From Nitrospirales bacterium (GTDB lineage Bacteria > Nitrospirota > Nitrospiria > Nitrospirales > UBA8639), in assembly GCA_029261355.1 (NCBI GenBank), contig JAJDBM010000033.1, forward strand, positions 1 to 46,010: a stretch of DNA of 46,010 nucleotides, in the 5' to 3' direction. Both the position numbers and the translations under genes were made by a program. Position 1 is the stretch's first letter, and each line of letters starts with the position of its first letter. Of the stretch, positions 5,747 through 27,300 are shown one piece after another. Under the pieces are notes generated by a model. The model was not told the origin of the DNA, ran no database searches, and saw only the letters and a program-made list of their open reading frames with translations.

Positions 5747-5757
5747 TATTTTGTAAC

Positions 5758-6030: not shown

Positions 6031-6078
6031 TCGTGCCTATGATCAAGTGAGAAAGACCTTTTCCTAAAACGATTTTGT

Positions 6079-9000: not shown

Positions 9001-9471
9001 ATTTCCTCAGCTCAATTTGGACAAGAAGACTCTATTCCTTCTACAACAGCGATAACGTCCGAAGACACGCTCCCTATCCTAAACCTATCAACACTGAAGA
9101 ATCTTCGTGTTTTAGGAGATGAGAATGATCCCAATTTCCTGGAATCCTTGATCGAGCAATTCCTCGAAGACATCCCTAGACATTCGACAGCCATTCAACT
9201 AGCCCTTAGCCAAGGAGATGCTGAGGCTCTTCGAATAGCCGCTCATACCTTCAAGGGGAGCGCAAAGTATATGGGGGCGGAACGCCTTGCGAAGCTAGCT
9301 GCAGACCTAGAAACCTTTGGGATAGAACAAAAAACGAAGGAGGCAAAAAAAATCCTCGAAGAATTTGAACAAGCAGTTGAATTCGCAACCACAGAATTCG
9401 TACTGATGTTGAGTAACAATGCATCCCCGCCAATTAACAGAGAAGAGGAAAGTTACACAATTAAGCACTAA
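6079..9471 (+). CDS. Hybrid sensor histidine kinase (GAF-HisKA-HATPase-REC-REC-HPt)
   Basis: This 1130-residue membrane sensor has a complete BarA/ArcB-like phosphorelay in one chain. Two membrane segments (about 19-42 and 187-210) enclose a helical periplasmic sensor. A GAF domain follows (about 225-390), then HisKA with H433 in [10 protein letters not shown]. HATPase_c has N546/N550, DTGIG at 582-586 and GGTGLGL at 611-617. The first receiver has D674/D675, D723 and K775; the second has E828/D829, D872, T927 and K949. The HPt domain carries H1056 in AAHTFKG. All catalytic residues are present, so the relay should be active. No response regulator is adjacent, so the final partner is unknown. 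The ATG at 6079 has a weak ribosome site; an ATG at 6094 is an alternative. The ligand cannot be predicted. Confidence 0.93.
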
Positions 9472-9625
9472 ATTTGTAGGAATTTCAGACTTATCTTGTT
9501 CTCCTACCCAGGGCTTCTAGCAACACCTTTTGACGTACCCAGTTCGTATCAACTCTCTACTCTGCCCTTCTTCTTATAAGGGTCCGTTGAAAAAAAACCG
9601 CCAGCCTTCGCCAAGGGTACGATAT

Positions 9626-9842
9626 GGGGTCAAGTTGTTTGTATTTAGAATGTAACTTTCATATTAAAAGACTCTACGACCACTACCGAAAGAACTACAG
9701 GCCTTTCCGATACTCTCGAACCAACCACATACTCTTGTCCAAGACCTGTAGAAACCGTTGTTTCTCTACTGCTTTCAGTTTTTTTTCATTCTTCTTATTG
9801 AGATCTGGTCGCATTTTTTAATAATGAACAAAGTCATGGATG
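9626..9842 (+). repeat. Half copy of the MITE-like element
   Basis: The segment starts with GGGGTCAAGTTGTTTGTATT and follows the left half of the copies at 2557 and 5328, including CTACAGGCCTTTCCGATACT and ATCTGGTCGCATTTTTT, then loses similarity. The right terminus is missing. On the minus strand the peptide V-L-D-K-S-M-W-L-V-R-E-Y-R is still readable. Confidence 0.65.
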
Positions 9843-9996
9843 AGGTCGTTCTAAACATACAGACACCAAGTTAAGAGTCAGACGCCTCTGTACTGCGATA
9901 CCCGAGCACTTGATGGAAATGCTGGCAGGTATAGAAGTATTCAATCTACTCACAGATCGCCTGACGCACTTCCGTGCGGTCTTGGAATGGTTGTTG

Positions 9997-10256
9997 CTCG
10001 GTGGGAGGGTTTCTTGTCCGGGAAAAGTTTCTGCCTTATGGGGTTCCAGTTCATCCTTTCACCGCTCAATCAACGTGCCACTCACGCCTAAACTTCGTTC
10101 AGCAGCCGCACAACTGGAGCTATGTTCCACCACCACCGCGATCGCTTCCTGCTTAAATTCCCAATTGTGATGCCTGCGTGTTCGCTTCATTCAACATCTC
10201 GTCTCGAATTATTATATAATCCTTAACTCGGTGTCCGATATTCCAGGGGAAGATCA
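9997..10256 (-). pseudogene. Dead right end of the IS3-family element, with truncated orfA
   Basis: This segment aligns base for base with the right end of the intact element (constant offset 3003; 10256 corresponds to 13259). It covers the terminal repeat and the first ~65 codons of orfA, whose start corresponds to 10190. The frame begins M-K-R-T-R-R-H-H but has an in-frame TGA where the intact copy has TGG. Similarity fades before 9997. It is a decayed copy of the same element, 53 bases upstream of the SulP gene, and may influence that gene's expression. Confidence 0.85.
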
Positions 10257-10309
10257 AGCATTACCAGTACGGATTAGTTTTCAAGCATACGATAGAGGAA
10301 ACCATATCC

Positions 10310-11908
10310 ATGAGTATGTCATCCGATTCTACTGAAATCCCCCAAGGGAATCTTGACGGGTTTAAAACCCATGCCAAGAACGATATCCTCTCTGGATTTT
10401 TAGTTTTTCTTATTGCGTTGCCGCTGTGCCTGGGAATTTCCCTGGCTTCAGGATATCCCGCGGTGGCAGGCATCTTTACGGCCATCGTTGGCGGTCTCGT
10501 TGCCACCTTCCTGAGCAATGCAGAACTGACGATTAAGGGACCTGCTGCTGGTTTGATTGTGATTGCATTAGGTTGCGTTCAGGATTTTGGGTTTACGGGC
10601 GGAGAAGACCCGGCAAAGGATTTCCAGGCCTATCGTTTGGCGTTGGGTGTTGGGGTTGTGGCAGGCGTATACCAAATTGTACTCGGACTTTTTCGCGTAG
10701 GGATCCTTGTCAAGCTTTTCCCGAAAGCGGCGATTCACGGTTTGCTGGCTTCCATTGGAATCATCATCATCGCCAAACAATTTCCTGTATTGATGGGATT
10801 GAATCCCAATGGGGCTCCTCTAGAATTGCTCGCTGGTATCCCTTCTTTTGTCATGAACATGAACCCGAAAGTTGCGTTCATTGGAATGATGGGGCTTACT
10901 ATTGTGGTGGTGTATAGCTATATAAAAAATCCAAAATTCAAGGTCATTCCCGCACCCATGTTGATGTTAATGATCACTGTTCCAATAGCCATATTTTTAG
11001 GAATTGGAGAGAAGGGTTCTTATACATTCAATCATCACATCTACGAACTCGGCGAAAAGTTTTTAGTCAATGTTCCAGGTAATTTGCTGAATGCCATAAC
11101 CTTTCCGGATTTTTCAGGAATCACCACGGAGACTGGAATTAAATATACGGTTCTTTTTGCGATCATTGGCAGTTTGGAGGGGATTCTCAGTGCAAAGGCT
11201 ATTGATGGGATCGATCCGTGGGGTCGAAAAACAAACCTGGATCGAGACTTATTGGCCACCGGTATCGCAAACACCCTGTCGGCTTTCATTGGTGGGTTGC
11301 CCATGATTTCTGAAATTGTTCGAAGTAAAGCCAATATTGATAACGGGGCAAGAACCCGGTTTGCCAATTTTCACCACGGGATGTTTTTACTTCTATGTGT
11401 TGCATTGATTCCAGGGGGCATTAATCAAATTCCTCTCGCTGCGTTGGCAGCGTTATTGGTTATCACAGGATTTCGTCTGGCTTCTCCCAACGAGTTTGTG
11501 TCTGTGTATCGTGAGGGAAAAGACGAGTTCATCATTTTTGTCTCTACCATATTGGGTGTACTCGCGACTGACCTTTTATTGGGATTAGCCATTGGCATTG
11601 GAGTCAAAATTGTCATCCATTTAATTCGCGGCGGTTCCATCTTCAGATTGAATGCCAAAATCATTCATGAAAGGGATCAGTCTGTCACGATTTTATTACG
11701 AGGTTCAATTATTTTCAGCTCATGGATTCCTCTAAGAAAACAACTTGATCGTTTCTTTCTGGAAGGGAAGCGGGTCACCTTGGATATGACAGAAACGAAA
11801 CTTGTGGACCGTAGGGTCAGGTCAAAGATTGACGAGTGGATAAGGAAATTCAGAGAAAACGGCCTTGAGTTGTCAGTGCGAGCCAGCATGACATCACTCG
11901 ATGAGTGA
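10310..11908 (+). CDS. SulP-family inorganic anion transporter with C-terminal STAS-like domain
   Basis: This 532-residue inner-membrane protein is mostly hydrophobic helices. The SulP N-terminal signature is near residues 28-85 (A-L-P-L-C-L-G-I-S-L-A-S-G, then a GPAAGL loop). A conserved core near 300-350 (R-D-L-L-A-T-G-I-A-N, GGLPMISEIVRSKANI, GARTR) is typical of the family. A shortened STAS-like domain (about 455-525) ends the protein, with D-M-T-E-T-K-L-V-D. Relatives carry sulfate, bicarbonate or other anions; the substrate cannot be chosen here. AGAGG at 10294-10298 precedes the ATG. The gene stands alone, bracketed by same-orientation copies of an IS3-family element. Confidence 0.9.
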   Translation: MSMSSDSTEIPQGNLDGFKTHAKNDILSGFLVFLIALPLCLGISLASGYPAVAGIFTAIVGGLVATFLSNAELTIKGPAAGLIVIALGCVQDFGFTGGEDPAKDFQAYRLALGVGVVAGVYQIVLGLFRVGILVKLFPKAAIHGLLASIGIIIIAKQFPVLMGLNPNGAPLELLAGIPSFVMNMNPKVAFIGMMGLTIVVVYSYIKNPKFKVIPAPMLMLMITVPIAIFLGIGEKGSYTFNHHIYELGEKFLVNVPGNLLNAITFPDFSGITTETGIKYTVLFAIIGSLEGILSAKAIDGIDPWGRKTNLDRDLLATGIANTLSAFIGGLPMISEIVRSKANIDNGARTRFANFHHGMFLLLCVALIPGGINQIPLAALAALLVITGFRLASPNEFVSVYREGKDEFIIFVSTILGVLATDLLLGLAIGIGVKIVIHLIRGGSIFRLNAKIIHERDQSVTILLRGSIIFSSWIPLRKQLDRFFLEGKRVTLDMTETKLVDRRVRSKIDEWIRKFRENGLELSVRASMTSLDE

Positions 11909-12045
11909 TTTTACTATCGTAGCGTGTAGATGTGAAAAGGCCGCCCCTGGTGGGAGAGGAGTTATTTTTGAATTCTCACTGCAAAAGGCATGAACCCTTG
12001 CGGGCATGAGGCCATTGATCTTCCCCCACGGGACCGGACACAAAG

Positions 12046-12900
12046 TTAAGCTGCCTGTTCAAATACTATCGGGGTCTGATATCCGATAGCGGAATGCCTT
12101 CTTTGCCGATTGTAATACGTTTCGATGTACTCAAAAATACTGACTTTCGCCATGCGGCGCGTCGTGTATCGCATTCGATGAACGAGTTCGACTTTCAGCG
12201 TGTGAAAGAAACTTTCTGTGACGGCGTTATCGTAGCAGGTCGCCCTGCGCCCCATGCTACAACGCAACTGATTGTTCGCCATCAATCGCTGATAGCGTTT
12301 TGAGCAATACTGACTGCCACGATCAGAGTGGAGAATGATGTCCTTTGGAAAGCCCCGACGGAATAACGCCATGCTCAAGGCGTCACACACCAATTGTTGT
12401 GTCATGCGTCGGTTCATCGACCATCCTACAATCGCTCGTGAATACAAATCCATCACCACGGCCAAATAGAGCCACCCCTCGTTCGTCCAGACATAGGTGA
12501 TATCACTGGTCCATTTCTGATTCGGAGCCTCCGCACGAAAGTCCTGTTTGAGCAGATCGGGTGCGACTGGGTTTGCATGAGTCGAATCAGTCGTCACTTT
12601 GAATTTCCTCGCCTGAATCGCCTTCAGTCCGAGTAGGCGCATCCTGCGGCTAATGCGATTTTCGCTACACCGGAGGCCCTCATGGTGTAAGGTTTTCGTG
12701 ATCCGTGGCGCGCCATAGCGTTGCCGATGTTCCCCAAAGATCTCGCGTATCCGTCTATCTAGGTTATGGGGCGAGCTCACGCGCTGCCTCTGCTCACGCG
12801 CGATCCAGTCATAATATCCACTTCGAGAGACGTCCAGAATGTCACACATGAGGGTGACGGGCCAGGCCTTCTTCTGCTCATCAATCAATTGATATCTCAT
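12046..12900 (-). CDS. IS3-family transposase OrfB (DDE catalytic subunit)
   Basis: This 284-residue protein has an rve-type DDE core: D133 in TSDITY, D193 in HSDRGSQY and E229 in the N-A-V-T-E-S-F motif, with 35 residues between the second D and the E. The HTH_21-type region (about 45-100) contains R-Y-G-A-P-R-I, and the C-terminal Y-N-x-x-R-R-H-S-A-I motif is present. It has no separate ribosome site; it overlaps orfA by 4 bases in the -1 frame, so it is probably made as an OrfAB fusion by frameshifting. The reading frame is intact. Confidence 0.95.
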   Translation of the reverse strand: MRYQLIDEQKKAWPVTLMCDILDVSRSGYYDWIAREQRQRVSSPHNLDRRIREIFGEHRQRYGAPRITKTLHHEGLRCSENRISRRMRLLGLKAIQARKFKVTTDSTHANPVAPDLLKQDFRAEAPNQKWTSDITYVWTNEGWLYLAVVMDLYSRAIVGWSMNRRMTQQLVCDALSMALFRRGFPKDIILHSDRGSQYCSKRYQRLMANNQLRCSMGRRATCYDNAVTESFFHTLKVELVHRMRYTTRRMAKVSIFEYIETYYNRQRRHSAIGYQTPIVFEQAA

Positions 12901-13193
12901 GTGCTTTCCTTGGCGAAGAAGGCCGTGGCTTTTTTTAAGATGTCACGCTCCATCCGCAACCGACGATTCTCCGATTCGAGCTCATGGATCCGCTGTCGCT
13001 CAGAGGTACGCTTCCCTTGTCCGGGAAAGGCTTCCGCCTTTTGGGTTTCCAATTCGTTCTTCCACCGCCCAATCAACGCGCCACTCACACCTAAACTCCG
13101 CCCAGCGGCGGTACAACTGTAGCCATGCTCCACCACCAACGCGACCGCTTCTTGTTTAAATTCCCGACTATGATGCCTGCGTGTTCGCTTCAT
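12897..13193 (-). CDS. IS3-family transposase OrfA (HTH DNA-binding subunit)
   Basis: This 98-residue protein has an HTH_Tnp_1 region from the start (K-R-T-R-R-H-H-S-R-E-F-K-Q-E-A-V-A-L), followed by R-S-L-G-V-S-G-A-L-I-G-R-W. A C-terminal leucine-zipper-like helix ends E-S-E-N-R-R-L-R-M-E-R-D-I-L-K-K-A, typical of IS3 OrfA. Length and layout are normal. The protein recognises the element ends and is fused to OrfB after a -1 frameshift. Confidence 0.94.
   Translation of the reverse strand: MKRTRRHHSREFKQEAVALVVEHGYSCTAAGRSLGVSGALIGRWKNELETQKAEAFPGQGKRTSERQRIHELESENRRLRMERDILKKATAFFAKEST
12930..12936 (-). promoter_or_regulatory. Slippery A7 site for programmed -1 frameshift in the IS3 element
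   Basis: On the minus strand a run of seven A followed by G lies near the end of orfA, in the register A-AAA-AAA. A -1 slip here reads straight into the orfB frame without an intervening stop. This is the usual way IS3 elements make the OrfAB transposase; its use here is inferred. Confidence 0.75.
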
Positions 13194-13280
13194 TTAACAC
13201 CTCGCTTTGAATTATTATATAATTCTTAACTCGGTGTCCGATATCGTGGGGGAAGATCACATTTAATTTCCCGCAACAAG

Positions 13281-14480
13281 TCAGTCTTTATCTTGTGACT
13301 TCTCTTTCTGCAATCGATCCAAAAGTTGGTTAAAACTTTGACTCAAGGTGCCTAATTCATTTCGGGAATGGACTGGGAGGCGTTTTTTTTCGTGATTTCC
13401 ATGAGCCAGTTCATCTGCCAGTTTGCAGACATCCAGGATGGGTTCGCTGATTGAGCGAGTAATGTTTGCCCCCAACACGCCGCTGATCAGTGCCGCCGTA
13501 AAAAACAATGCCACCAAAAGAACAATTAAATAATGAGTGCTGCTGGAAATCTTCTCAACATCATTTTCCAGCAATTGCTCCTGAACCGTCGTCATTTCAT
13601 TCAAGAGTTCCTTGATTCGAAAGGCTAATGGGGCAGCCTCAGTTTTCACCCAATAATTAGCCCGATTCCAATCTTCTCCTGACCGAATTCGGATAATTTC
13701 TTTCAGTAAAGGATCGAACTGATTGAGTCCACTTTGCAGGGATTCAAAATTTTTCAACTGCTTTTTACTTAAGTTGTTTGCATGCTCCTTTAATGCGTCC
13801 AGCGACGCAGCACTTTTCCCCCAGTTTTCCAGAGATTCCTTTTTAAATTCTTGTTTGCCAGATAACAAAAACTCGTCGGCTCTTTCCAAAGCCAGGCTGG
13901 TTGTCGTCTCTATAGTAGCGAGAATTTCTATCAGTCGCCTATTTTGTGGAGTAATCTTGCCTTTCATATTCTGCTTGATCATTTGAGAAACGGTTGCCAC
14001 GATGGTTTTTTCCAAAGGTTCCGCTTGATCAAATAGAATTTTTTGTGCAGGAGAATTTTCCGGGGTTCGTGCGATATCTTCAATGTTCTGTTGGACCTTG
14101 TTAAAATCATCGATTTCTTTTTCGATGGTTTTTAACCGGGCCTTATTTTCCGGATCTGTCCAGTGGGGAGCAAGCTGATGCATCTGCTTCAGGGATGGGT
14201 TGATTTGTTCTGCCCAGGCAAGAGCTCGTTCTGTCTGGAATTTTTGATCTCCCAGGAGAATCCACCCACGCAGTGAAGCCAGGGAATGGTTGATACCATT
14301 TAACATCATAAGACTGGCATGAGCCGTGGGAGTTCGAAGGTCGACAACCCTCTTAGTGATAACCTCCATACTTTTTACTTGCTGAATGGTGAGCAATACC
14401 ACTCCCATTAAAATAAGTGTGGTGGCCCCAAAACCCAACCCCACTTTCTTCCCAATCGTCATATCCCTAAAATTAAACAT
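13281..14480 (-). CDS. HBM-HAMP receptor-like protein without signalling domain
   Basis: This 399-residue membrane protein has a first membrane helix at about 12-32 and a large all-helical periplasmic region of about 280 residues, consistent with a helical bimodular (HBM) sensor. A second membrane helix (316-340) and a HAMP domain (about 341-393, with S-E-P-I and R-N-E-L-G-T-L-S) follow. It then stops after a short charged tail, with no chemotaxis MA domain, kinase or GGDEF. The stop lies 22 bases before the IS3 element. The DNA beyond the other end of the element does not continue the gene, so the IS did not simply split it. A purine-rich GGGGGTT precedes the ATG. It may be a natural output-less sensor or a truncated chemoreceptor. 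Confidence 0.8.
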   Translation of the reverse strand: MFNFRDMTIGKKVGLGFGATTLILMGVVLLTIQQVKSMEVITKRVVDLRTPTAHASLMMLNGINHSLASLRGWILLGDQKFQTERALAWAEQINPSLKQMHQLAPHWTDPENKARLKTIEKEIDDFNKVQQNIEDIARTPENSPAQKILFDQAEPLEKTIVATVSQMIKQNMKGKITPQNRRLIEILATIETTTSLALERADEFLLSGKQEFKKESLENWGKSAASLDALKEHANNLSKKQLKNFESLQSGLNQFDPLLKEIIRIRSGEDWNRANYWVKTEAAPLAFRIKELLNEMTTVQEQLLENDVEKISSSTHYLIVLLVALFFTAALISGVLGANITRSISEPILDVCKLADELAHGNHEKKRLPVHSRNELGTLSQSFNQLLDRLQKEKSQDKD

Positions 14481-16642: not shown

Positions 16643-17175
16643 TCAACGATCGTATACAGAGGTCTTTCTCGGGTAACTCTTGAGATTCTCTCCGAGAAAG
16701 ATCTCAATCCTTCTTCTACCTACCAAAGCGCTTTCATCCCTTGGTCTGCCATTCAAAAACTGGCTCTGCCTTCATCCGAAATGCTTTGATATTTTGTATC
16801 GCGACCTTGAGAAATCCCCAGAGACACCTGACATTTCCCCCTGGCCTCTTCTCAATAGGCAACATTCCAAGCTAATCCAATTTGAGGGAAAACTCACCCT
16901 TATGATTACCCACCTAGAAATACAAAAGAAGAACAGTGATAGAGAAAGAACTGTAAAAGATTATAAGCTAAACTACATAATTTGTAGCCTTTCCTTATCT
17001 TTCTTGTGATTACCAACCGATACATCGTAATATTCACAAATACCTGAAACAACTAAAAGACCTTCGCTCTCGTACTATTTGGCTCAAAGACTACGCCCGG
17101 GCCACAGTCGTTCAATGTGCGGGAAGACATAGCGGCTCCAGCCAATTGCGATAGCATGACTTCAAGGAGGGATCA
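16643..17175. other. Intergenic region upstream of the NHL cluster
   Basis: This 533-base gap starts with a hairpin after the parvulin gene (listed separately) and ends with the strong ribosome site AAGGAGG at 17164-17170 for the TTG start of the NHL gene. A 109-codon frame at 16680 has no recognisable domain and overlaps the hairpin, so I do not call it. Confidence 0.55.
16663..16701 (+). terminator. Hairpin after the parvulin gene, possible terminator
   Basis: TCTTTCTCGG (16663-16672) and CCGAGAAAGA (16692-16701) form a perfect 10-bp stem with a 19-base loop, 20 bases after the stop codon. A solid T run is missing, so intrinsic termination is uncertain. Confidence 0.4.
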
Positions 17176-19344
17176 TTGCGACACTCAACCCCGCTTAATC
17201 TAACTTCCTCTTTTACTGCACCACTTGTGATATTTCTCAGCCTTGCCTGTTGTATGACCAATGATGCTGCGTACGGATTTGAAAATATCACTTACATTCA
17301 AGATCTACGCGGGGGGCTCAAGGAACCCAGTGATGTCGGCATTGCCGCGAATGGAGATATTTTTGTTCTAGATAGAGACTCTTCTAAGGTCTTTATTTTT
17401 GATGGATCCGGAACACCACGGTTAGACTTTGGAGGGAAAGGGTCTGGACCTGGACAATTTGATGACCCCGAATCTCTTGCAGTTTTCCCAAACGGTCATA
17501 CACTTGTGGCTGATACTGGAAATGATCGTATTCAAGCATTCGATTCCTCCGGAAAATTTCTCTTTCAGTTCGGATCTGCAGGAAAGTTACAAGGGCAATT
17601 TAATACACCAACGGGCATAACGATTGATCAATTTGGGATTGTGTTTGTTGCTGATCAAGACAATCATCGTATACAGGCCTTCAGCGAGCAAGGAATTTTT
17701 CTTCACACCTTCCCAATCAATGGGGCCCCGAGAGACGTCGCGATTGATCCTCAAAGAAATCTTTATATTCTCGTCCCAGACTTGAGTGCCATCATCAGAA
17801 TCCCTGCCAATAGAAAAGGATCGGAAACGATTTCGAACAGCAGTGGCTCATTAGGTTTCTTAGACTCGGCCAGCGGAATTGTCGCCGATATGCGTGGAGA
17901 TCTCTACGTTACTGAACAGTCTGACGAAAGTATTAAAAAACTTAATAGCAAAGGGCACATCTTGCTCTCGTTTGGATCAGATGGAGAAGGCCCAGGGCAG
18001 TTTGATGAGCCATCTGGAATCGGAGTTGATCCAGATGGTTATATTTTCATCGCAGACTCTGACAATCATCGAATTCAAAAGCTACAAGTGACAGGAAGCA
18101 AGAAAACTCCTATGCCTGTCGTCACACAGTCTCCTCCCATTATTGAGTTTGATTCGTTCATGAAGGCTGAACAAGGCATTACGGATTTGACCTTTACCGC
18201 CGAACACGGGCTTTTTCTTCTCTCTCTTGGACAGGACCGTATCTTGCGTGTCGGCTCCACCACTCACGTGCTTGGCAACAGTGGGAACCAACCAGGACAA
18301 TTTGATGAACCCCGAGCGTTGGCTGCAATGAATGATGGCTCCATCCTTGTTGCAGACACTGGCAATGATCGAATTCAAATTCTTCGTGCAGACGGCTCAC
18401 CCGTCTACCAATTTGGGAAATCTGGAGACAAAACCGGACAATTCGATGAACCACAGGGAATTGCGATGGGCCACAACAATCTTATCTATGTTGCGGATAC
18501 AGAAAACCATCGTATTCAAATTTTCAATAAAGAAGCCATCTTTTTAAGAGCCTTTGGTCAAGAAAGCCAAGAGATCACAATACAAACACCCGAGCATGGA
18601 AATTTTGATACTCCGACGGCCTTAGCAGTCAATTCCGAGAATCATATCTACGTGCTGGATTCAAAGAATCATCGTGTTCAAGAATTTACTGAGGAAGGTC
18701 AATTTATCAGGCAGATTGGGAAACAGGGGCAAAATTCCGGTCAATTTTTGGACCCTGTTGATATCGCGATCGATGAAAATGATTATCTCTATGTCGCCGA
18801 CCAGGGCAACACACGCATTCAAGTTTTTAGCCCAAAAGGCGATCTGGTTTTCCTATTCGGAGCGTCAGCAGGCAGAAAGCTATTGGGTTTGTCATTTTCA
18901 TTTGGAGCATCGAAAGAAGCTCATCCAGCGAAATTTAATAAAATATCAGCTGTGACTGCTGCTAAAGGAAAGCTCTATGTCGCCGACCATGCCTCGAAGA
19001 CTGTGCAAGTATTTCGCTTTTACCCTACAGGCCTCGTGAAGGAAGAGCGGTTTTATGTCATGAAGTCTGTCTTTCCTCCACAAGAAGCTACCGGTGATCC
19101 CTATACTGTCGCCAAAGAAGCTGCACAGAGTCAGGCGCTCTCGGAGTTGGGCGTTCAAACAGGATTGACTATTGAACAACTGCAAGAGGTATCCAAGCTC
19201 GAAGGGGTTGAGACTCTCTCAACTGGTGCCGTTCAGGTCACAATTAGCGTTCCCAAAAAGCTGATACAACAAGGCCAGAAACAGCCCCCAGCTCCACCCC
19301 AGCAAAAAGAAAAACCTGGCTCTGAAGAGTTCATCTTGCAATAA
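17176..19344 (+). CDS. Secreted NHL-repeat protein, two six-bladed propellers
   Basis: The 722 residues start with a hydrophobic export signal (about 1-34). Twelve NHL-type units follow up to about residue 615, most with G-Q-F-D-x-P, then V-A-D-T-x-N-x-R-I-Q. Twelve units suit two six-bladed beta-propellers. The C-terminal ~100 residues (A-K-E-A-A-Q-S-Q-A-L-S-E-L region) resemble the small alpha-beta domain at the start of FlgT/LPP20-type proteins, and a P/Q-rich tail ends the chain. The TTG start is set by AAGGAGG five bases upstream. NHL propellers bind proteins, glycans or RNA; an extracytoplasmic binding role is inferred. It leads a four-gene cluster with a 46-base gap to the next gene. 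Confidence 0.85.
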   Translation: MRHSTPLNLTSSFTAPLVIFLSLACCMTNDAAYGFENITYIQDLRGGLKEPSDVGIAANGDIFVLDRDSSKVFIFDGSGTPRLDFGGKGSGPGQFDDPESLAVFPNGHTLVADTGNDRIQAFDSSGKFLFQFGSAGKLQGQFNTPTGITIDQFGIVFVADQDNHRIQAFSEQGIFLHTFPINGAPRDVAIDPQRNLYILVPDLSAIIRIPANRKGSETISNSSGSLGFLDSASGIVADMRGDLYVTEQSDESIKKLNSKGHILLSFGSDGEGPGQFDEPSGIGVDPDGYIFIADSDNHRIQKLQVTGSKKTPMPVVTQSPPIIEFDSFMKAEQGITDLTFTAEHGLFLLSLGQDRILRVGSTTHVLGNSGNQPGQFDEPRALAAMNDGSILVADTGNDRIQILRADGSPVYQFGKSGDKTGQFDEPQGIAMGHNNLIYVADTENHRIQIFNKEAIFLRAFGQESQEITIQTPEHGNFDTPTALAVNSENHIYVLDSKNHRVQEFTEEGQFIRQIGKQGQNSGQFLDPVDIAIDENDYLYVADQGNTRIQVFSPKGDLVFLFGASAGRKLLGLSFSFGASKEAHPAKFNKISAVTAAKGKLYVADHASKTVQVFRFYPTGLVKEERFYVMKSVFPPQEATGDPYTVAKEAAQSQALSELGVQTGLTIEQLQEVSKLEGVETLSTGAVQVTISVPKKLIQQGQKQPPAPPQQKEKPGSEEFILQ

Positions 19345-19390
19345 GAAAAACATAATTCACATACTGGCTGCAATCATGACGAGGACGAAT

Positions 19391-21634
19391 ATGAAGAACA
19401 CATCATTCCAGAGAGCTGCAACCCCTCTTGCATTGATTGCCCTTCTTGTAGGTACTGGCTGCAGTTCCTTGAATAATCAATTCGATAACGCTCTGTCGAA
19501 AATGAGTTTAGGGAATAGTGATGCGTATATAGAGGGGAAAAGCTATCTTGACGCTCATGCCTATGATCAGGCCGTTCAGAAGTTCGAACTTGCGCTCAAA
19601 GACAAACCTGGAAATAAAAAAATTCTGTCTGACCTGGAGAAAGCCAGATCCCTTGCCGCACAGGCTCATTTCAAAAGAGGTGAAACACTTTCAGCAAAAG
19701 ATGAATTGAGTGGCGCTCTTATCGCATTTGAAAAAGCCAAAACCTACCAACCCCATAATCAATTATTCGTTAATCGCTATACACAAGAGAGAAAACAGTA
19801 TGACCTTGTGAAGGTCAAAATGACCGAAGTCGAGAAAAAGGCCAGAGAATCCAATCAATGGGAACAGGGCATCACCACACTTCAATCTATGACGCGATAC
19901 GAATCTTCTTTTCCTGAACTTCATAGCCGAATCCAAGCCTTACAGCAACAAGGGGCTCACTATTACGAAACTCGATCTGATGACAAATTATCGCAGCAGG
20001 ACTTTGAAGGCTCGTCGGAAGAAATTCAACAAGCCGCACAGCTTTCAAATGACACAAAATTCTCTAAGAAGAACACCGCGCGACACCATCTTCTTCTGTC
20101 TCGACAGGCTTGGGATACAAAGAAATACTCATTGGCCTATGAAGAAATTCTCAAAGGACTGGAGTTCGAACCAGATCAACCTGAATTCATGCAGTATCAA
20201 CATCAGCTCGTTGAGCAATGGGTTGATGTGATGTACAACGAAGCCATTCAAGCACAAAATAATGGCAATCCGGTGCTCGCGAAGGCTCGGTTACGACGCA
20301 TTTCGCAGTTAAAGCCTGGCTATTTAAATGTTGAAGCGTTACTTGCGGATATCGGCGGTGGCCTGAATGCAACCTATTACACGAAGGCCGATGCATTTCT
20401 GCAAGAAGACGACCGTTCGAAACTTGGCCTCGCGCTGGCTCATTACCTGTTAGTCCGAGAACAGCACGACCCGCAGTTCGCCGACGTCGAAGAAAAGATT
20501 ACCATGACCAAACGAATGTTGCTTGATGACGTACAACTCAGGATCGCCGTTCACTTTGGCAACAAATCCTCTGAGCCGGGAGCGGGAGGTATGGTCTACA
20601 ATCAAATACTGGATCGATTGCGAAACTCAAAGAAAATTAAAAATCTGGCCCTGATCGAACGCGAAGCGATTGACAAAATATTGCAAGAACAAGCCTTGGG
20701 CCAGGGATTCTTAGATCCATCTACGAGCCCACAAGTCAAGAAAATCAAAGGAGCTCATGCCGGACTTTTTGGAGATGTCATCCGAGCCAAGGTCCAAGAA
20801 TCTGGTCGAGATCAGCCGACCTTTGGAAGTTCAACCTATGTCAGCGGGACACAATACATTCCCAACCCCGATTATGCTCCAAGGCGACAAGAAGTGGCTA
20901 ATGCCCAACAAGCCTTTCTGATGGCCAAGCAGGATTTGGGAAGTGCCGAGATTCAGTCAAAGCAAAGTCAGGCAGATTTGATCAATAGACAACAACAAAT
21001 GAAACAAGGCCTCAATTCAAGCAGTAACAAAATGATGGCTATTGGTAATATTCTCCAAGGATTAGGTTCCACCGCGGACTTGAGCGGAGCAAGAGATAGA
21101 GTCAGAAGTGCAGAATCTCGCCTTCAGTCAGCACAAACAGATCTCGCCATTACTCCAGAGACCATAGAAAAAGAAATAGAAGATACCTTTCGGTACCCCA
21201 TTTATGACTTAACCCTTGACGGTGAGGTTGTGCTGGCCTATCGACTCGTCAATTACACCACAGCTGAAGTCGGCGCTTCTCGCACGATCACAAAATCTGG
21301 AGCCAAGAACGACCGATACATCCAAGGGGACCCAGGGAAAGGTGTCCCCAGCGATGCCAACGACTTACCCACCAAAGATGAATTCCTACAAGGCCTCTTA
21401 ACCGAAGCCATCGAAGGAGCGGCTCAAGCCATTGAATCTGAAATGGCGAGCTATGCCGAAAGCTATTATGAAAAAGGCCTGAAAGCCGAGGAACATGGGT
21501 TAGAAGAAGACGCCATCGAGAACTATATTCGATATATCTACTCCGCCTCTAATCTTGGCGATATCAATGTGCAACATGCCAACCAATATATTTATGACAA
21601 GATGGGAGTCTTAGTCATTCGAAGAAAAACATAA
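19391..21634 (+). CDS. TPR lipoprotein with CsgG-like domain
   Basis: A lipoprotein signal (M-K-N-T-S-F-Q-R, hydrophobic core, G-T-G-C with C24) is followed by TPR-like helices (about 40-370). A CsgG-like domain follows (about 382-470: a strand with R-I-A-V, then L-D-R-L-R-N-S, I-E-R-E-A-I-D-K-I-L-Q-E-Q-A-L, then H-A-G-L-F-G-D-V-I). A Q-rich coiled region (about 500-570), a beta-rich segment with Y-D-L-T-L-D-G (about 600-640) and a last TPR-like pair (about 690-722) end the chain. CsgG-like domains occur in outer-membrane export lipoproteins and in flagellar FlgT. AGGA before 19391 and the signal sequence favour this ATG over the one at 19376. Membrane assembly or secretion is inferred. Confidence 0.78.
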   Translation: MKNTSFQRAATPLALIALLVGTGCSSLNNQFDNALSKMSLGNSDAYIEGKSYLDAHAYDQAVQKFELALKDKPGNKKILSDLEKARSLAAQAHFKRGETLSAKDELSGALIAFEKAKTYQPHNQLFVNRYTQERKQYDLVKVKMTEVEKKARESNQWEQGITTLQSMTRYESSFPELHSRIQALQQQGAHYYETRSDDKLSQQDFEGSSEEIQQAAQLSNDTKFSKKNTARHHLLLSRQAWDTKKYSLAYEEILKGLEFEPDQPEFMQYQHQLVEQWVDVMYNEAIQAQNNGNPVLAKARLRRISQLKPGYLNVEALLADIGGGLNATYYTKADAFLQEDDRSKLGLALAHYLLVREQHDPQFADVEEKITMTKRMLLDDVQLRIAVHFGNKSSEPGAGGMVYNQILDRLRNSKKIKNLALIEREAIDKILQEQALGQGFLDPSTSPQVKKIKGAHAGLFGDVIRAKVQESGRDQPTFGSSTYVSGTQYIPNPDYAPRRQEVANAQQAFLMAKQDLGSAEIQSKQSQADLINRQQQMKQGLNSSSNKMMAIGNILQGLGSTADLSGARDRVRSAESRLQSAQTDLAITPETIEKEIEDTFRYPIYDLTLDGEVVLAYRLVNYTTAEVGASRTITKSGAKNDRYIQGDPGKGVPSDANDLPTKDEFLQGLLTEAIEGAAQAIESEMASYAESYYEKGLKAEEHGLEEDAIENYIRYIYSASNLGDINVQHANQYIYDKMGVLVIRRKT

Positions 21635-21681
21635 CGACGATCTTTTTACTATATGTACCATTACAGTCATCTAAAATTTTA

Positions 21682-24600
21682 ATGAATATCCACTCATTAC
21701 ATCCAAAGAATAGTCAATTCAGGGTTCGACTCCTGACTGGTACAATCTTGCTCATTCTACAGGCCCTCATTGTGGGAACAGGACATGCGGTTGTCGAAGA
21801 AAGACCTGGTGACTTTACGAATCTAAACATCGAACGCCACCTTAATACAATATTAAAAGAGTTACCTGTCTATAATCCGTCAAGCAAGACGGTCACTCCT
21901 GACCAGCCTCCATCACGAACGTTACAACAAGCCATGGCAGCCCTTGAAGCCGAATGGAGGAAAGTCCATGCCGCCAGTGACTTACACGACTTAATTCCTC
22001 CGACACGCACCACAGTGTTACAACGCTGCGAACAATTAAAGAACGTCTATACCGAGCCAATCGTTGCAAAAACCACGCTTGAAATAGAATTGCTGAAGCT
22101 TACACAACGTGAACGTTACGTCGATAACGCACGGAAAGAAGTGACATTTCGAAACTGGCAGACGTTTGTCGGTGCAATGGGCCACCTTGTCAAGGAATCC
22201 TACGACTCCTTTAAAAAGCTTATTTCACCGTCTCCTAAAGACGTCAAGAACCTCTTCACAGCAATCATAAAGAAAATGATCAAGCAAGCTCGCGCAAAAG
22301 GAATCAGCAACCCAGCTGGAACTGCTGCTGCCAGAGCTGATGAACAACACCTTGGAAAGAATGGGCTCAAATACTTCCTCGAACACGAAAAAGAAATTAT
22401 TCAAGCCCTAGAGGGGTATGTCAAAACAAGAAACTTTCAACCTCACGAGCTCAAGAACCCTAAACAAATTATTAAAGAACTCTTTATCTTTATTCGACAA
22501 TTTTTACGAAATCGCACAAAAATTGAATTACCAGGAATCCGAAAACGTATCACTGAAGTCCAAAAAGAGCTCAAGAAATATACCGGGGTGACATTACGAC
22601 CAGGATCGAGAAAAATGCTTGATTATGATGATCTCTGTCAACGCATTCGTGATTTACAGCCATGGAAGCAACGACGGATGATTGCCTTGGCGATTGACCC
22701 TAAGCAAGTCACGATCAATGTTGGCGACACGGTAAGCTTTAGAGCCATAGGTACTTATACCAATGGAACTAAGATCTATGTAACCAATAGAGTGAACTGG
22801 CCAAACGGAAAATCATTTACAGGAGTCACGCCAGGGAAGTTTACAATTCTTGCTGAATTTCGCAGCCTCACTGCTCCAGGACGCATTACCGTCGTTACGA
22901 CACCTAAGCCGCCAATACGAACTCCACCGGGACCAACACCGACTCCAGGGCCAGATCCAGGCCCCGAGCCAGTTGAGCCTCCCACGCCTACACCAACAGT
23001 ACCATCACCACTGGAGGCAAGTTTTAGCTGTGGCGATTCATTTGAATTATCGCCCAATGAGGTGCTCTATCCGAAAACCTGTTATGTCCAAGCGAGCAAT
23101 TTCCAAACGACTCGGGAGCAAGTTGAGTTAACAGTTCAATACGACAAAAAGCTGATCGATGTGACCTTTGATGAACAATCTGAAGTCGCACGAATCCCCA
23201 ATACAGAGTTTCTTTTAATGTTTCGAACACGGACAACAGCTCCTCCTACAGTGACGCCAGTCACCATTATCGTCAAACATGGTAATGAGACCGTCAGGAT
23301 TCCCATCACCATTGCGATTCTTGCACCGAACCAAGAATCAAGCAGAGGACCAGGCATTCGCCCTCCTGCCACTGTCGCGACTGGGTCCGAGGGAGGAACC
23401 TATTGTGTCTGGCGTTCAAAATCATTTGGTGACGGACCAAATTGTTTCAATATTACGAGAGCCCAGTGTGATAGCCCACGTTATGCAGGTAAGTCCAAAT
23501 ATGAGTTGGTTGGCTCAAGCATGACCCCCATGGAATCAGCTGTTAGAGCATCTCAACTCAGTCCATACAAAGATGATGCTTATGGGTGTCATAAGCAGCC
23601 TCCAAAACCTCGGGATACTGAAGAAGGACAAGATAGCGGAACCGGAACTGGGCCTTCTGGTGGAACTGGAAACGGTCGAGGGCATGGCACTGGTGATGAC
23701 CAAGGTCCGGATGATGACGAAGGCTCGGGTGATGATGAAGGCCCTGACGAAAATAAAGACAGCGGTGAAGAGCAGGAATCTAGCGGTGAGAAAAACGCCG
23801 AAGAAGAGGCCAACGCAGGAGACAAGGAAGACTCCGACAGCGGCGAAGACCCCGCTGAGAAGAATGCAGAAGAAAATCTCCTATCCGATTTTCCCGATGA
23901 TCCTGATGACGGCAAAGCTGATGAGGACTCAGCGACTCGTGAACAAGAACAAGCGGCTGAAAATTTTAGTGATGGCACTCCTCATTCAACAGGGTCAACG
24001 GACCCAGACAAAATGGTCAGTTCAGATTCAGACAGCGAAGGGTCCACTGATGTGGCGGTAATTGCTCAAGGTGAACGAGATCGCCAAGAAGCGGAAGATC
24101 GAGACCGAGCAACTGAGAGAACGAATGAAGAACGGCAGGATACTGAATCACAACGTGAGACTAATCGGCAAGATGAAGAAGATTATCAAACTCAAGAACA
24201 GGCGGCACAGGACAACGTGCAGCAAGCTCAAGCACAAGGGCAAGCTCAGATCGATGCGGCTCAAGACAAACCAGATCCCCGCATGTCTGCCACAGATGTG
24301 ACTGATGCAGTTCAAGACATTGATGACAAGACCAATGCCGCCGTTGCCGCCATTGATGATCAGATCCAACAACGACTTGGAGGCCGCCAAGGTGGTCCAA
24401 CTATACAGCCTCTTCAACCACCACCTGATATGGGTGGGGGGCCAGTGGACACAGCCGTGGTCCAATGCGATGCGAAATTTGGTGCTGGTGGAGACAATCC
24501 AGGTTTCTTCACCATAGACTTTAATGGGGCCCACGGCGTTGCCAAATTTACTTACAATATGGTGTCGGTCAAAGACCAAATGATTATCAGCGCTGGCGGA

Positions 24601-24765
24601 CAAACGTTTGACACAACATGTCGAAGTAGTGGAGAACCCATGTCCATTTCCATACCTCGCTCAAATTCACCAGTCACCGTCAGGGTAATCCCAAACTGCG
24701 CGTGCAAGAAAGCATCTTGTACAGGAACCCGCTGGAGTTTTACGTTCCATTGTCCAGTTCCATAG
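21682..24765 (+). CDS. Large secreted protein with Ig-like domain and acidic linker
   Basis: This 1027-residue protein is of no recognised family as a whole. A signal peptide (about 1-37) leads into a helical region (to about 330). A Big2-like Ig domain (about 334-408, with T-I-N-V-G-D-T-V-S-F-R-A-I-G) and a P-x-P linker (about 411-445) follow, then a beta domain (about 450-560) and a cysteine-containing segment (about 570-640). A strongly acidic D/E/G-rich stretch (about 642-760), a Q/E/R-rich likely coiled coil (about 795-900) and a six-cysteine C-terminal beta domain (about 917-1027) end the chain. The cysteines suggest disulfides and extracytoplasmic placement. Acidic repeats could bind calcium; this is a guess. 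It lies 47 bases after the CsgG-like gene and is probably the surface partner of the cluster. Confidence 0.75.
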   Translation: MNIHSLHPKNSQFRVRLLTGTILLILQALIVGTGHAVVEERPGDFTNLNIERHLNTILKELPVYNPSSKTVTPDQPPSRTLQQAMAALEAEWRKVHAASDLHDLIPPTRTTVLQRCEQLKNVYTEPIVAKTTLEIELLKLTQRERYVDNARKEVTFRNWQTFVGAMGHLVKESYDSFKKLISPSPKDVKNLFTAIIKKMIKQARAKGISNPAGTAAARADEQHLGKNGLKYFLEHEKEIIQALEGYVKTRNFQPHELKNPKQIIKELFIFIRQFLRNRTKIELPGIRKRITEVQKELKKYTGVTLRPGSRKMLDYDDLCQRIRDLQPWKQRRMIALAIDPKQVTINVGDTVSFRAIGTYTNGTKIYVTNRVNWPNGKSFTGVTPGKFTILAEFRSLTAPGRITVVTTPKPPIRTPPGPTPTPGPDPGPEPVEPPTPTPTVPSPLEASFSCGDSFELSPNEVLYPKTCYVQASNFQTTREQVELTVQYDKKLIDVTFDEQSEVARIPNTEFLLMFRTRTTAPPTVTPVTIIVKHGNETVRIPITIAILAPNQESSRGPGIRPPATVATGSEGGTYCVWRSKSFGDGPNCFNITRAQCDSPRYAGKSKYELVGSSMTPMESAVRASQLSPYKDDAYGCHKQPPKPRDTEEGQDSGTGTGPSGGTGNGRGHGTGDDQGPDDDEGSGDDEGPDENKDSGEEQESSGEKNAEEEANAGDKEDSDSGEDPAEKNAEENLLSDFPDDPDDGKADEDSATREQEQAAENFSDGTPHSTGSTDPDKMVSSDSDSEGSTDVAVIAQGERDRQEAEDRDRATERTNEERQDTESQRETNRQDEEDYQTQEQAAQDNVQQAQAQGQAQIDAAQDKPDPRMSATDVTDAVQDIDDKTNAAVAAIDDQIQQRLGGRQGGPTIQPLQPPPDMGGGPVDTAVVQCDAKFGAGGDNPGFFTIDFNGAHGVAKFTYNMVSVKDQMIISAGGQTFDTTCRSSGEPMSISIPRSNSPVTVRVIPNCACKKASCTGTRWSFTFHCPVP

Positions 24766-24906
24766 GATTCTTTAAACATCCGATATGCGTAACCTTACTT
24801 GTATTATTTGTTTAGCCTCTAGAGTCAATCTATCTGGTAATCACAGAGCTGGTTCTTCGGTCTTCGGACTCAACTAACATGATTTGGGCTTTCACACAGG
24901 ACTGAC

Positions 24907-26130
24907 ATGATGACTCAATCATTTTCCAACAGCCAACATCGACCGTCTCGCTTCTACGTGGCGAAGTTCTGCTTCATCGCCTTAGGCCTCGTTTGCTTCA
25001 ATGCTTCTCTCTGTTGGGGAAATTCGGGTGAATCGTTTCAAGGAATAGGAACCGCTGTCGTAATCAGTGGAGATAAAGATTCGGCAGTAAAAATTGCACA
25101 ACAAGCCGCTCTGCAGAAAGCTATTTCTCAGGCCATGGAGAGTCAGATTCAAAAAGGCACGAAGGAGGAATTGAAATACAATGTCAACCGTCAAGGACTT
25201 CTCAAAGGTCCATTCTCCTTCATCACCCAACAACGAGTCCTAAAAACAGAGATACAAGGAAAATTACTTAAGGTCTTTGTAGGAATTCATGTCGACTCTA
25301 ACCGCTTACTTCAGTACCTCGGACAACAAGGCATCTTGGCTCACAGAATGGAACAACGAAAAAGAAAAGAATTTCCTCCTATCATGGTGTTAGTGAGCGA
25401 AGAAATTAGTGGGAAGGAACACACACCTTCTTTTTCTAGAAATATCTTGAGCAAAACTTTATTGGAAAATCAGTTTGAATTAGTCGACGAGCAAGCAATC
25501 GCACATAGTATCGAACATGACAAGGCCGTACAAAGCCTTTTGAAAGGCAATCAACGAGCCGCTGTAGCTATGGCCCTGCAATATGGAGCGGGAATCATTA
25601 TTTCTGGGAGAGCCACCGTGCATAAAGCTGCCCTCAAGTCAGCAGGCATGCAAGTGTATGGTGCCAATGTTGTGCTGCAAGCCTATCATACTGATTCTGC
25701 AGAAATATTTGCATCTGCTTCCGCTGATGGCACATATCCGCACATTCACATGTTGGCCGGGTCGAGAAAAGCGATTGAAGAAGCGACAGATAAAGCTCTC
25801 AAGAGTCTCCTGAAAGATTTCCAAAGACAATTTGAAACGTCTGAGTCCAAACTCCTAGTTTCCATTAGCGGCATCACGTTTCGCCAATTAGAATATCTCA
25901 AGAGGATTTTGAAGGATCCAGGAAGATTCCCATCACTTTCTGACATTAAACCTAAAAGCTATCAAGCCAAAGTTGCCAAGCTCCAATTCACCATTACCAA
26001 CAGCCCTCAAGAATTTATTGATGAAATGGCAACTTATGATTTTGGGAAATTCGCTTTGGATGTCTTAAGTTATGCACCAAGAAAAATTGACTTTGCTCTC
26101 CGTATAAAATCTCGCTCAGACAGTCGATAA
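24907..26130 (+). CDS. FlgT-like envelope protein
   Basis: The 407 residues begin with a signal peptide (about 1-38, ending near C-W-G-N-S). An LPP20/FlgT N-type domain follows (about 43-140, F-Q-G-I-G-T-A-V-V then A-Q-Q-A-A-L-Q-K-A). A FlgT-middle/CsgG-like domain (about 152-305, with I-M-V-L-V, then Y-G-A-G-I-I-I-S-G-R-A) and a small C-terminal alpha-beta domain end the chain. The size and domain order match FlgT, a periplasmic part of the sodium-motor flagellar ring. No flagellar gene is nearby, so a non-flagellar use of the fold with the upstream CsgG-like lipoprotein is more likely here. The gap from the previous gene is 141 bases, so it may have its own promoter. Confidence 0.75.
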   Translation: MMTQSFSNSQHRPSRFYVAKFCFIALGLVCFNASLCWGNSGESFQGIGTAVVISGDKDSAVKIAQQAALQKAISQAMESQIQKGTKEELKYNVNRQGLLKGPFSFITQQRVLKTEIQGKLLKVFVGIHVDSNRLLQYLGQQGILAHRMEQRKRKEFPPIMVLVSEEISGKEHTPSFSRNILSKTLLENQFELVDEQAIAHSIEHDKAVQSLLKGNQRAAVAMALQYGAGIIISGRATVHKAALKSAGMQVYGANVVLQAYHTDSAEIFASASADGTYPHIHMLAGSRKAIEEATDKALKSLLKDFQRQFETSESKLLVSISGITFRQLEYLKRILKDPGRFPSLSDIKPKSYQAKVAKLQFTITNSPQEFIDEMATYDFGKFALDVLSYAPRKIDFALRIKSRSDSR

Positions 26131-26148
26131 CGAAGGGCCCTACCCCCA

Positions 26149-27300
26149 TTACTCTGGAAGATAGAGACTACCCTGATTGAGCAGATCCAAGAATAGTCGA
26201 AGATTAGACTCTGATGGAATGTTCCTACCAATCTTCACTGTGAGATCAGCACACAATACTTTGACAAGATCTATTTGTTCTTGACTACATCGAAACTGAT
26301 GGCCATCGGCGAATAAGAATAACTCATGATCACGTTCATGAAAGACAAACTTCGACCCTTCATTTCGTTGAAGCATCCCCCCTGCCGTTATATGTGCTCG
26401 TAAATCTTCAAGCTGAATAGTCGGCGTGGCATCTCCTTCATCAGGGTATTTCTGGGCAGTAATAAATCGGCCAAACCAGTCAGTTAAGACATCGTTGTCT
26501 TCAAGATGCTGTCGTACGATCTGATGCACATTCTCTAAGGCTTCTGGTGTGAGAGCCCCAGCATGATTCTGAGCCACGAGGTCTGCGTCACTGTACCGAA
26601 CCTCGTCACTAAGGGTTTCTCCAACATATTCTGCGAATCCTCGAAGAATCTCACTATGCGACGGAGCACGAAACCCAACCGAGCAAGTCATACAATCATT
26701 GCCCATCGCGATTCCACTATGACCAACACATGGTGGAATATACAGCATATCACCCGGTTCTAAAATCCACTCCTGCTCTGGTGTCCAATCAGTCAGGATC
26801 ATCACGGGAGTATCTGCACGACGAGGGGACGTCGAGTCAAATCGTCCTCCAACTTGCCATTTTCGACGTCCGCTCCCCTGGACCAAAAAGACATCATAAT
26901 TGTCATAATGTGGACCAACCCCGCCGCCATCACTGGAATAGCTGATCATCAAATCATCAATCCGCCAGCTTGGAATAAAATGAAATTGCGTGAGAAATTC
27001 AGCAGCAGCAGGCACCCAATGATCGACGGCCTGAACAAGCAAGGTCCAATGTTTGTCAGGCAAAGAGCTAAAGGTCTCCTCCGTAAATGGCCCATGGGTC
27101 ATGTCCCATCGATCACTCACTCCGTCACGAATGACGAGTCGAGACTCAACACATTCTTCACACGCAAGCCCGGCCAATTCATCAGCCGCAATAGGAGGAA
27201 CAAGACCTGGTAAGGCGTTGCGAATCAATAGTGGCTTCTTTTGCCAATATTCCGAGAGAAAGATTTCCAAAGAGAGGTCACCGAGCGGTAGATTTTTCAT
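26149..27300 (-). CDS. JmjC/cupin oxygenase, ribosomal uL16 arginine hydroxylase type (YcfD/RoxA-like)
   Basis: This 383-residue protein matches the prokaryotic ribosomal oxygenase family. S-W-R-I-D-D-L-M-I-S-Y is followed by G-G-G-V-G-P-H131-Y-D133-N-Y-D-V-F-L, and the distal ligand H194 lies in Y-I-P-P-C-V-G-H-S-G. These form the Fe(II) HxD...H triad. The C-terminal ~150 residues fit the family's dimerisation and winged-helix parts. E. coli YcfD hydroxylates an arginine of ribosomal protein uL16 with 2-oxoglutarate and O2; the same substrate is likely but not proven. It is 9 bases downstream of the ElaA gene in the same direction and convergent with the FlgT-like gene (18-base gap). Confidence 0.9.
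   Translation of the reverse strand: MKNLPLGDLSLEIFLSEYWQKKPLLIRNALPGLVPPIAADELAGLACEECVESRLVIRDGVSDRWDMTHGPFTEETFSSLPDKHWTLLVQAVDHWVPAAAEFLTQFHFIPSWRIDDLMISYSSDGGGVGPHYDNYDVFLVQGSGRRKWQVGGRFDSTSPRRADTPVMILTDWTPEQEWILEPGDMLYIPPCVGHSGIAMGNDCMTCSVGFRAPSHSEILRGFAEYVGETLSDEVRYSDADLVAQNHAGALTPEALENVHQIVRQHLEDNDVLTDWFGRFITAQKYPDEGDATPTIQLEDLRAHITAGGMLQRNEGSKFVFHERDHELFLFADGHQFRCSQEQIDLVKVLCADLTVKIGRNIPSESNLRLFLDLLNQGSLYLPE

What the first reader, a model, noticed from the sequence alone, without database searches (positions are those of the whole stretch)
17176..26130. Four-gene envelope cluster with CsgG-like and FlgT-like domains, NHL propellers and a large acidic secreted protein
Four co-directional genes with gaps of 46, 47 and 141 bases all encode exported products. 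They are a 12-unit NHL protein, a TPR lipoprotein with a CsgG-like domain, a 1027-residue multidomain protein, and a FlgT-like protein. CsgG forms an outer-membrane export pore and FlgT a periplasmic ring part, but no curli or flagellar genes are present. The set may be an undescribed surface assembly or secretion system. Gene order and domains are seen; the joint function is inference.
Basis: partly seen in the sequence, partly recalled or inferred. Interest (0 to 1): 0.82.

Follow-up and report, generated by a model that had tools for sequence, protein, structure and literature searches.

The report
Mobile envelope cluster with swappable cargo
In nitrite-oxidising Nitrospirales bacteria, four neighbouring genes for exported envelope proteins are gained or lost as one block, and the large third gene has in some relatives been cleanly replaced by a giant Rhs-type protein, which suggests an undescribed outer-membrane assembly that handles interchangeable surface proteins.

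Summary
Four co-directional genes (window 17176-26130) encode exported proteins: a 12-unit NHL propeller, a TPR lipoprotein with a CsgG/PelC-fold domain, an acidic 1027-residue protein and a FlgT-fold protein. The CsgG and FlgT matches survive profile and structure searches. The set is a unit: the same order recurs in G020 at another chromosomal site, and relatives of both genera show an empty site where exactly these four genes are missing. In two relatives (Nitrospirales MAGs NPIRA03 and NPIRA06) the NHL and CsgG genes are 96-98% identical to G020, but similarity stops at the CsgG stop codon and the third gene is an unrelated, signal-peptide-bearing Rhs/YD-repeat protein. Slot 3 is therefore an exchangeable cassette. 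A FlgT-like gene directly upstream of a TPR-CsgG gene recurs in seven distant Nitrospirota genomes, so that pair is a conserved module. My best reading is an outer-membrane-anchored CsgG-like/FlgT-like assembly that exports or displays whatever slot 3 encodes (about 0.4). A CsgG-type pore is not supported: the place of its first membrane hairpin is filled by a 93-residue helical hairpin. Function is untested.

The parts
17176..19344 (+). Gene 1: exported NHL protein, 12 NHL units (probably two six-bladed propellers) plus a conserved C-terminal tail of about 110 residues ending SEEFILQ
   Evidence: Pfam NHL 9e-67; orthologue 55% identical in G020; tail conserved in G020, G022, G032
19391..21634 (+). 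Gene 2: TPR lipoprotein with CsgG/PelC-fold domain (lipobox cysteine at residue 24; alternative start at 19376)
   Evidence: Pfam CsgG 6e-6 and TPR_2; 61% identical in three relatives; model pLDDT 68
20531..21478 (+). CsgG/PelC-fold domain, residues 381-696 of gene 2
   Evidence: VIA-align: PelC 5t10 Z 9.6 (2.6 A, 120 residues), HpaA 8t8d Z 9.7, CsgG 4uv2 Z 9.0
20873..21151 (+). Antiparallel helical hairpin, residues 495-587 of gene 2, inserted at the position of CsgG's TM1; absent from other Nitrospirota family members
   Evidence: model helices H495-539, H546-587; family alignment; resembles MacA/AcrA hairpins, Z about 9-10
21682..24765 (+). Gene 3 (slot 3): secreted 1027-residue protein; basic helical N-terminal region, Ig-like segment, Cys-rich block, acidic coiled-coil stalk, Cys-rich C-terminal domain
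   Evidence: 48% identical in G020, which adds a PASTA domain; no family hit
23602..24261 (+). Acidic low-complexity/coiled-coil stalk of gene 3 (residues 641-860, pI 4.05); 32% identical to the slot-3 tail of G232
24427..24762 (+). C-terminal domain of gene 3 (residues 916-1027, six Cys); close match only in G020, replaced by another C-terminus in G232
24907..26130 (+). Gene 4: periplasmic FlgT-fold protein (FlgT_N/FlgP-like N-domain plus TolB/CsgG-like middle domain)
   Evidence: FlgT 3w1e E 1.1e-9 and LPHT-ring FlgT 8z5n E 2.3e-9; FlgP 9hmf_C E 1.5e-6
16673..26147 (.). Extent of the block present here and absent at the same site in G003 (142 bases there) and G002
   Evidence: blastn of window flanks against L123 and L125
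16364..16642 (+). Left flank: 92-aa parvulin-like (PpiC-type) ORF that marks the insertion site
   Evidence: 94-96% identical in G001 and G003; type assigned from sequence
26149..27300 (-). Right flank: ROXA/YcfD-like JmjC protein that marks the insertion site
   Evidence: Pfam JmjC_2 1e-36; 69-73% identical in G001-G004

Best explanation
The four genes are one transferable envelope unit. Gene 2 is an outer-membrane lipoprotein whose CsgG/PelC-fold domain, together with the FlgT-fold gene-4 protein, forms a ring-like periplasmic assembly under the outer membrane. This assembly exports, presents or anchors the large Sec-exported protein encoded in slot 3. The TPR arm and the NHL propellers of gene 1 are client-binding or scaffold parts. 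Slot 3 is exchangeable: an acidic multidomain protein here and in G020, an Rhs/YD-repeat protein in NPIRA03/NPIRA06, and another stalked protein in G232. Shown by tool results: gene content, folds, shared gain or loss as a block, the cassette break, and the conserved FlgT/TPR-CsgG pair. Inferred: ring formation, export or display of slot 3, and all roles of gene 1.
For: Same four-gene order in G020. Empty sites at two different loci: S8 peptidase|UPF0114 in G018 and G012, and PpiC|JmjC in G003 and G002. Cassette break: NHL+CsgG DNA is 98.3% (G022) and 95.8% (G032) identical to G020 up to the CsgG stop, then slot 3 is unrelated. The G032 slot-3 protein has RHS repeats 2e-86 and an Rhs core domain 1e-22, and this Rhs N-terminus occurs nowhere else in 235 Nitrospirales genomes. 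A slot-3 variant with a shared stalk but another C-terminus is in G232. A FlgT-like gene sits directly upstream of a TPR-CsgG gene in seven genomes of four other families. Fold matches to ring formers CsgG, PelC, TraT and FlgT. PMC12222027 reports that ring formation in the FlgP/FlgT SHS2 family goes with an insertion after the SHS2 helix; the FlgP alignment runs through that region without a gap.
Against: No oligomer could be predicted. There is no recognised outer-membrane barrel in the unit, and the CsgG TM1 position holds a helical hairpin flanked by a strand with 40% charged residues, so how cargo would cross the outer membrane is unknown. No export signal shared by the slot-3 proteins was found (gene 3 against Rhs: no significant match). 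In other Nitrospirota the pair is followed by a fibronectin-III protein rather than a cargo-like gene. The Rhs gene is cut by a contig end in both MAGs, and its gene-4 neighbour lies on a separate contig.
Confidence: 0.42

Rival explanations
1. A non-secretory envelope scaffold: the CsgG-fold/TPR lipoprotein and the FlgT-fold protein tie the outer membrane to the cell wall or regulate wall or envelope upkeep, as LpoB- and GNA1162-like lipoproteins are thought to do, and slot 3 encodes a structural or adhesive partner that happens to vary.
For: Nitrospiraceae relatives of gene 4 lie among GNA1162-, LpoB-, CsgG- and LPP20-type lipoproteins; other Nitrospirota pairs have TPR-SLH and fibronectin-III neighbours and no evident cargo; no barrel protein in the unit.
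Against: Patchy gain and loss as one block and wholesale replacement of slot 3 beside 98%-identical genes are unusual for housekeeping scaffolds.
Confidence: 0.33
2. An antagonism island: slot 3 encodes polymorphic effector proteins (the Rhs type clearly of that class) delivered to rivals, with genes 1, 2 and 4 as a dedicated export apparatus.
For: Rhs core with DPxGL-type end followed by a long non-core tail in G032; C-terminal variation among slot-3 proteins; sharp cassette exchange.
Against: No toxin domain or immunity gene identified; no PADLOC match; gene 3 here has no Rhs repeats and ends in a small Cys-rich domain of unknown kind; the Rhs C-terminus is not assembled.
Confidence: 0.15
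3. A polysaccharide export module in the manner of PelB/PelC, with the TPR-CsgG protein as a fused PelC-like ring.
For: PelC is among the closest folds of both gene 2 and gene 4; one relative pair lies next to rml and sugar-transferase genes (L133).
Against: No glycosyltransferase, synthase or barrel gene in the window cluster or in G020.
Confidence: 0.05

Closest known systems
CsgG, curli export lipoprotein
   Same: CsgG Pfam domain over cut-off; same core fold (4uv2, Z 9.0); outer-membrane lipoprotein signal
   Different: Large N-terminal TPR arm; helical hairpin in place of TM1; no CsgA/B/E/F genes nearby
PelC, ring-forming lipoprotein of Pel polysaccharide export
   Same: Closest compact fold match of the gene-2 domain (2.6 A over 120 residues) and of the gene-4 middle domain (Z 12.3)
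   Different: No Pel synthase or PelB barrel; TPR fused to the CsgG-fold domain itself
FlgT, H-ring protein of the Vibrio flagellar motor
   Same: Best whole-model structural match of gene 4; FlgT_N/FlgP-type N-domain plus TolB/CsgG-like middle domain
   Different: About 10% identity; no flagellar genes nearby; partner is a TPR-CsgG lipoprotein
Rhs/YD-repeat proteins and bacterial teneurin-like proteins (PMC13018210)
   Same: The slot-3 protein of NPIRA03/06 has RHS repeats and Rhs core; NHL and YD modules co-occur in one unit
   Different: NHL and YD are on separate proteins; gene 3 of the window has no YD repeats; no toxin domain seen
Operons of GNA1162-, LPP20- and CsgG-type lipoproteins
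   Same: Same superfamily parts, found with gene-4 relatives in Nitrospiraceae
   Different: Different gene set; no exchangeable large slot known to me

Membership tests
Curli secretion system (CsgG type) | CsgG-fold domain | tested here: met
   Pfam CsgG 26.1 bits, cut-off 20.8; 4uv2 Z 9.0 over 165 residues
Curli secretion system (CsgG type) | Two transmembrane beta-hairpins that build the pore | tested here: inconclusive
   TM1 position holds a 93-residue helical hairpin; the strand after it is 40% charged against 14% in E. coli CsgG TM1; no oligomer model possible
Curli secretion system (CsgG type) | Curlin subunits and CsgE/CsgF partners | tested here: not met
   no such domain among the scanned main window ORFs; the rest of the genome was not searched for curlins
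FlgT | FlgT_N/FlgP-like SHS2 domain | tested here: met
   13 of 14 aligned relatives match FlgT_N, best 1e-9 (window member alone 18.1 bits, below 28.8); FlgP 9hmf_C E 1.5e-6
FlgT | Whole-protein FlgT fold | tested here: met
   3w1e rank 1, E 1.1e-9, 8z5n rank 2
FlgT | Part of a flagellar motor | tested here: not met
   no flagellar genes in the window or the G020 neighbourhood; the genome as a whole was not searched
Rhs polymorphic proteins (slot 3) | RHS/YD repeats and Rhs-associated core | tested here: met
   met for slot 3 of G032 (RHS_repeat 2e-86, Rhs_assc_core 1e-22); not for gene 3 of the window
Rhs polymorphic proteins (slot 3) | C-terminal toxin with cognate immunity gene | tested here: inconclusive
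   both Rhs contigs end inside the gene; no family hit downstream of the core
PelC | PelC/CsgG fold | tested here: met
   5t10 Z 9.6, 5t0z Z 9.2 for gene 2
PelC | pel-type polysaccharide genes alongside | tested here: not met
   none in the window scans
Bacterial teneurin-like proteins | NHL and YD shell in one polypeptide | tested here: not met
   NHL is gene 1, YD repeats are slot 3 of relatives

The most novel reading that the evidence does not exclude
A previously undescribed outer-membrane export system of Nitrospirota, built from a TPR-CsgG lipoprotein and a FlgT-like ring protein, that carries interchangeable Sec-dependent cargo including giant Rhs proteins, for which no outer-membrane exporter was previously known.
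Probability: 0.22. Interest if true: 0.88.

Novelty: new variant of a known kind. Interest (0 to 1): 0.62.

Why it matters
Gram-negative Rhs and teneurin-like proteins that carry a Sec signal have no known way across the outer membrane; [quoted passage not shown] A compact unit in which the putative machinery stays constant while the large client is swapped gives a concrete, testable candidate. It also shows that FlgT-type ring proteins pair with CsgG-type lipoproteins outside flagella across Nitrospirota, including nitrite oxidisers that matter in the nitrogen cycle.

Tried and rejected
Pore claim: I looked for amphipathic transmembrane strands at both CsgG hairpin positions and found none convincing, but could not exclude them. 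NHL tail as a FlgT_N-like domain: hhalign overlaps the right helix but has probability 2%, so not claimed. Helical hairpin as a TolC-docking adaptor: MacA/AcrA hairpins match at Z 9-10, but long coiled hairpins score so in general and no adaptor domains are present; not pursued. Slot-3 proteins sharing a signal: gene 3 against Rhs gave nothing. Profile searches of PDB sequences with genes 2 and 4 alone gave no useful hit; the wider FlgT set was needed. Whole-model Foldseek of gene 2 is swamped by TPR proteins. Plasmid and viral collections: no relatives of gene 2. Defence library: none. Flanking direct repeats: none beyond chance at either site, so the means of transfer is unknown. Papers: no text holds FlgT, CsgG and outer membrane together, and none holds 'CsgG-like' with TPR, lipoprotein and gene cluster.

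Full report
What is there. The four ORFs are real and lie as described. Gene 1 is an NHL protein. Gene 2 is a TPR lipoprotein with a CsgG domain over Pfam's cut-off. Gene 3 has no known family. Gene 4 is only weakly FlgT_N-like alone, but an alignment of 14 relatives settles it: 13 match FlgT_N, the profile finds the Campylobacter flagellar disk protein FlgP (9hmf_C, E 1.5e-6; identity of 9HMF from PMC12222027), and the AlphaFold2 model (pLDDT 81) has FlgT 3w1e and the LPHT-ring FlgT as its two best PDB matches.

Host. The window is a whole contig of a 4.6-Mb assembly. Two close relatives are named 'Nitrospirales bacterium' NPIRA03 and NPIRA06. The family is probably UBA8639 (Nitrospira lineage IV); that is an inference from kinship labels and from PMC12342949. 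G+C of the cluster (0.44-0.47) does not differ from its surroundings.

The set is a unit. Of 59 relatives, none of the other four members of the window's genus has a gene 2 or gene 4 orthologue, while G020 in another genus has all four in order at 48-62% identity. Among 235 genomes of the order only four have a full-length gene 2. In G020 the block lies between an S8 peptidase and a UPF0114 gene; in G018 and G012 those neighbours, 84-93% identical at DNA level, are separated by about 455 bases and the four genes are missing. In the window the block lies between a PpiC-like ORF and a JmjC gene; in G003 these are 142 bases apart in the alignment, and G002 is alike. In G001 the same site holds about 10 kb of other genes. 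So the same four genes came or went as one block at two different chromosomal sites. No flanking repeats were found.

Slot 3 is exchangeable. In G022 and G032 the DNA is 98.3% and 95.8% identical to G020 through the end of gene 1 and all of gene 2, and the match stops within four bases of the gene-2 stop codon. The next gene, about 160-250 bases on, is an Rhs/YD-repeat protein with its own hydrophobic N-terminus, RHS repeats at 2e-86 and an Rhs core at 1e-22. Its N-terminal 213 residues occur in no other of 235 Nitrospirales genomes. In G032 the similarity to G020 resumes inside gene 4 on another contig with the same downstream gene. In G232 the gene before gene 4 shares only the acidic stalk with gene 3 (32-35% identity) and ends differently. 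G020's own slot-3 protein differs from the window's by an added PASTA domain. Two divergent MAGs with the same junction make misassembly unlikely, but both contigs end inside the Rhs gene.

The FlgT/TPR-CsgG pair is older than the unit. In a phylum-wide search, gene-2 homologues appear in other Nitrospirota families. In seven of them (L133, L134, L136-L140) a FlgT-like gene lies directly upstream on the same strand, 3 to 91 bases away (in L133 the FlgT-like ORF is short). The third gene there is an exported protein with several fibronectin III domains, with a sub-threshold CsgG match in one case. G024 has both genes 1.2 kb apart, beside large exported proteins. Pairwise identities of the two proteins across ten genomes correlate at 0.98, though shared species history explains much of that. 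Two further gene-2-like genes (L135, L141) have no FlgT-like neighbour, so the pairing is strong but not universal.

Structure of gene 2. The model (pLDDT 68) shows a confident TPR arm and a CsgG/PelC-like domain at residues 381-696. VIA-align gives HpaA Z 9.7, PelC Z 9.6, CsgG Z 9.0 and TraT Z 8.1; these Z values are moderate, and the Pfam hit supports them. At the place where CsgG has its first membrane hairpin lies a helical hairpin (495-587) that other Nitrospirota members lack. E. coli CsgG (L142) has 14% charged residues in TM1, and the corresponding strand here 40% (the TM ranges are from memory of the CsgG structure). A CsgG-like barrel is thus neither shown nor excluded.

How it most likely works (inference). 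Gene 2 sits lipidated in the outer membrane and, with gene 4, forms a periplasmic ring-like assembly, as PelC, CsgG, TraT and FlgT do. The Sec-exported slot-3 protein is its client and is exported or held at the surface. The TPR arm and the NHL propellers are likely binding modules. The exchange of slot 3 beside near-identical machinery is the main reason for preferring a client model over a plain envelope scaffold, which remains the chief rival.

Verdict. The new points are the block gain or loss at two sites, the cassette exchange with an Rhs protein, and the phylum-wide FlgT/TPR-CsgG pair. I found no description of this combination in the paper library, which holds only open-licence papers.

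Noticed in passing
L124 (G001) about 3390-13486: The PpiC|JmjC site that holds the four genes in the window carries about 10 kb of unrelated genes in G001, so it may be an insertion hotspot.
   Followed up: partly
L133, L134, L136, L137, L138, L139, L140: Conserved trio in other Nitrospirota families: FlgT-like, TPR-CsgG, and an exported multi-fibronectin-III protein (one with a weak N-terminal CsgG match); some neighbourhoods also have a TPR-SLH protein or a transglutaminase-like protein.
   Followed up: partly
L028, L089, L092: Nitrospiraceae FlgT-like genes lie next to GNA1162-, LpoB- or CsgG-like lipoproteins and what look like CHASE2-type signalling proteins (the latter by eye).
   Followed up: partly
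L029 10579-12126; L097 about 9768-11438: Caspase-like proteins whose C-terminus matches the CsgG-like middle domain of gene 4.
   Followed up: no
L027 5940-8543: Exported 867-residue protein with a weak match to the MXAN_6640 metalloprotease family, beside the distant FlgT-like/TPR-CsgG genes of G024.
   Followed up: no
window 34466-38992: 1508-residue protein with many PKD domains and Golvesin_C domains.
   Followed up: no
window 12046-13193: IS3-type transposase gene pair on the minus strand.
   Followed up: no
window 283-2019: AIPR (abortive phage infection related) protein in a 34% G+C stretch, probably foreign DNA.
   Followed up: no
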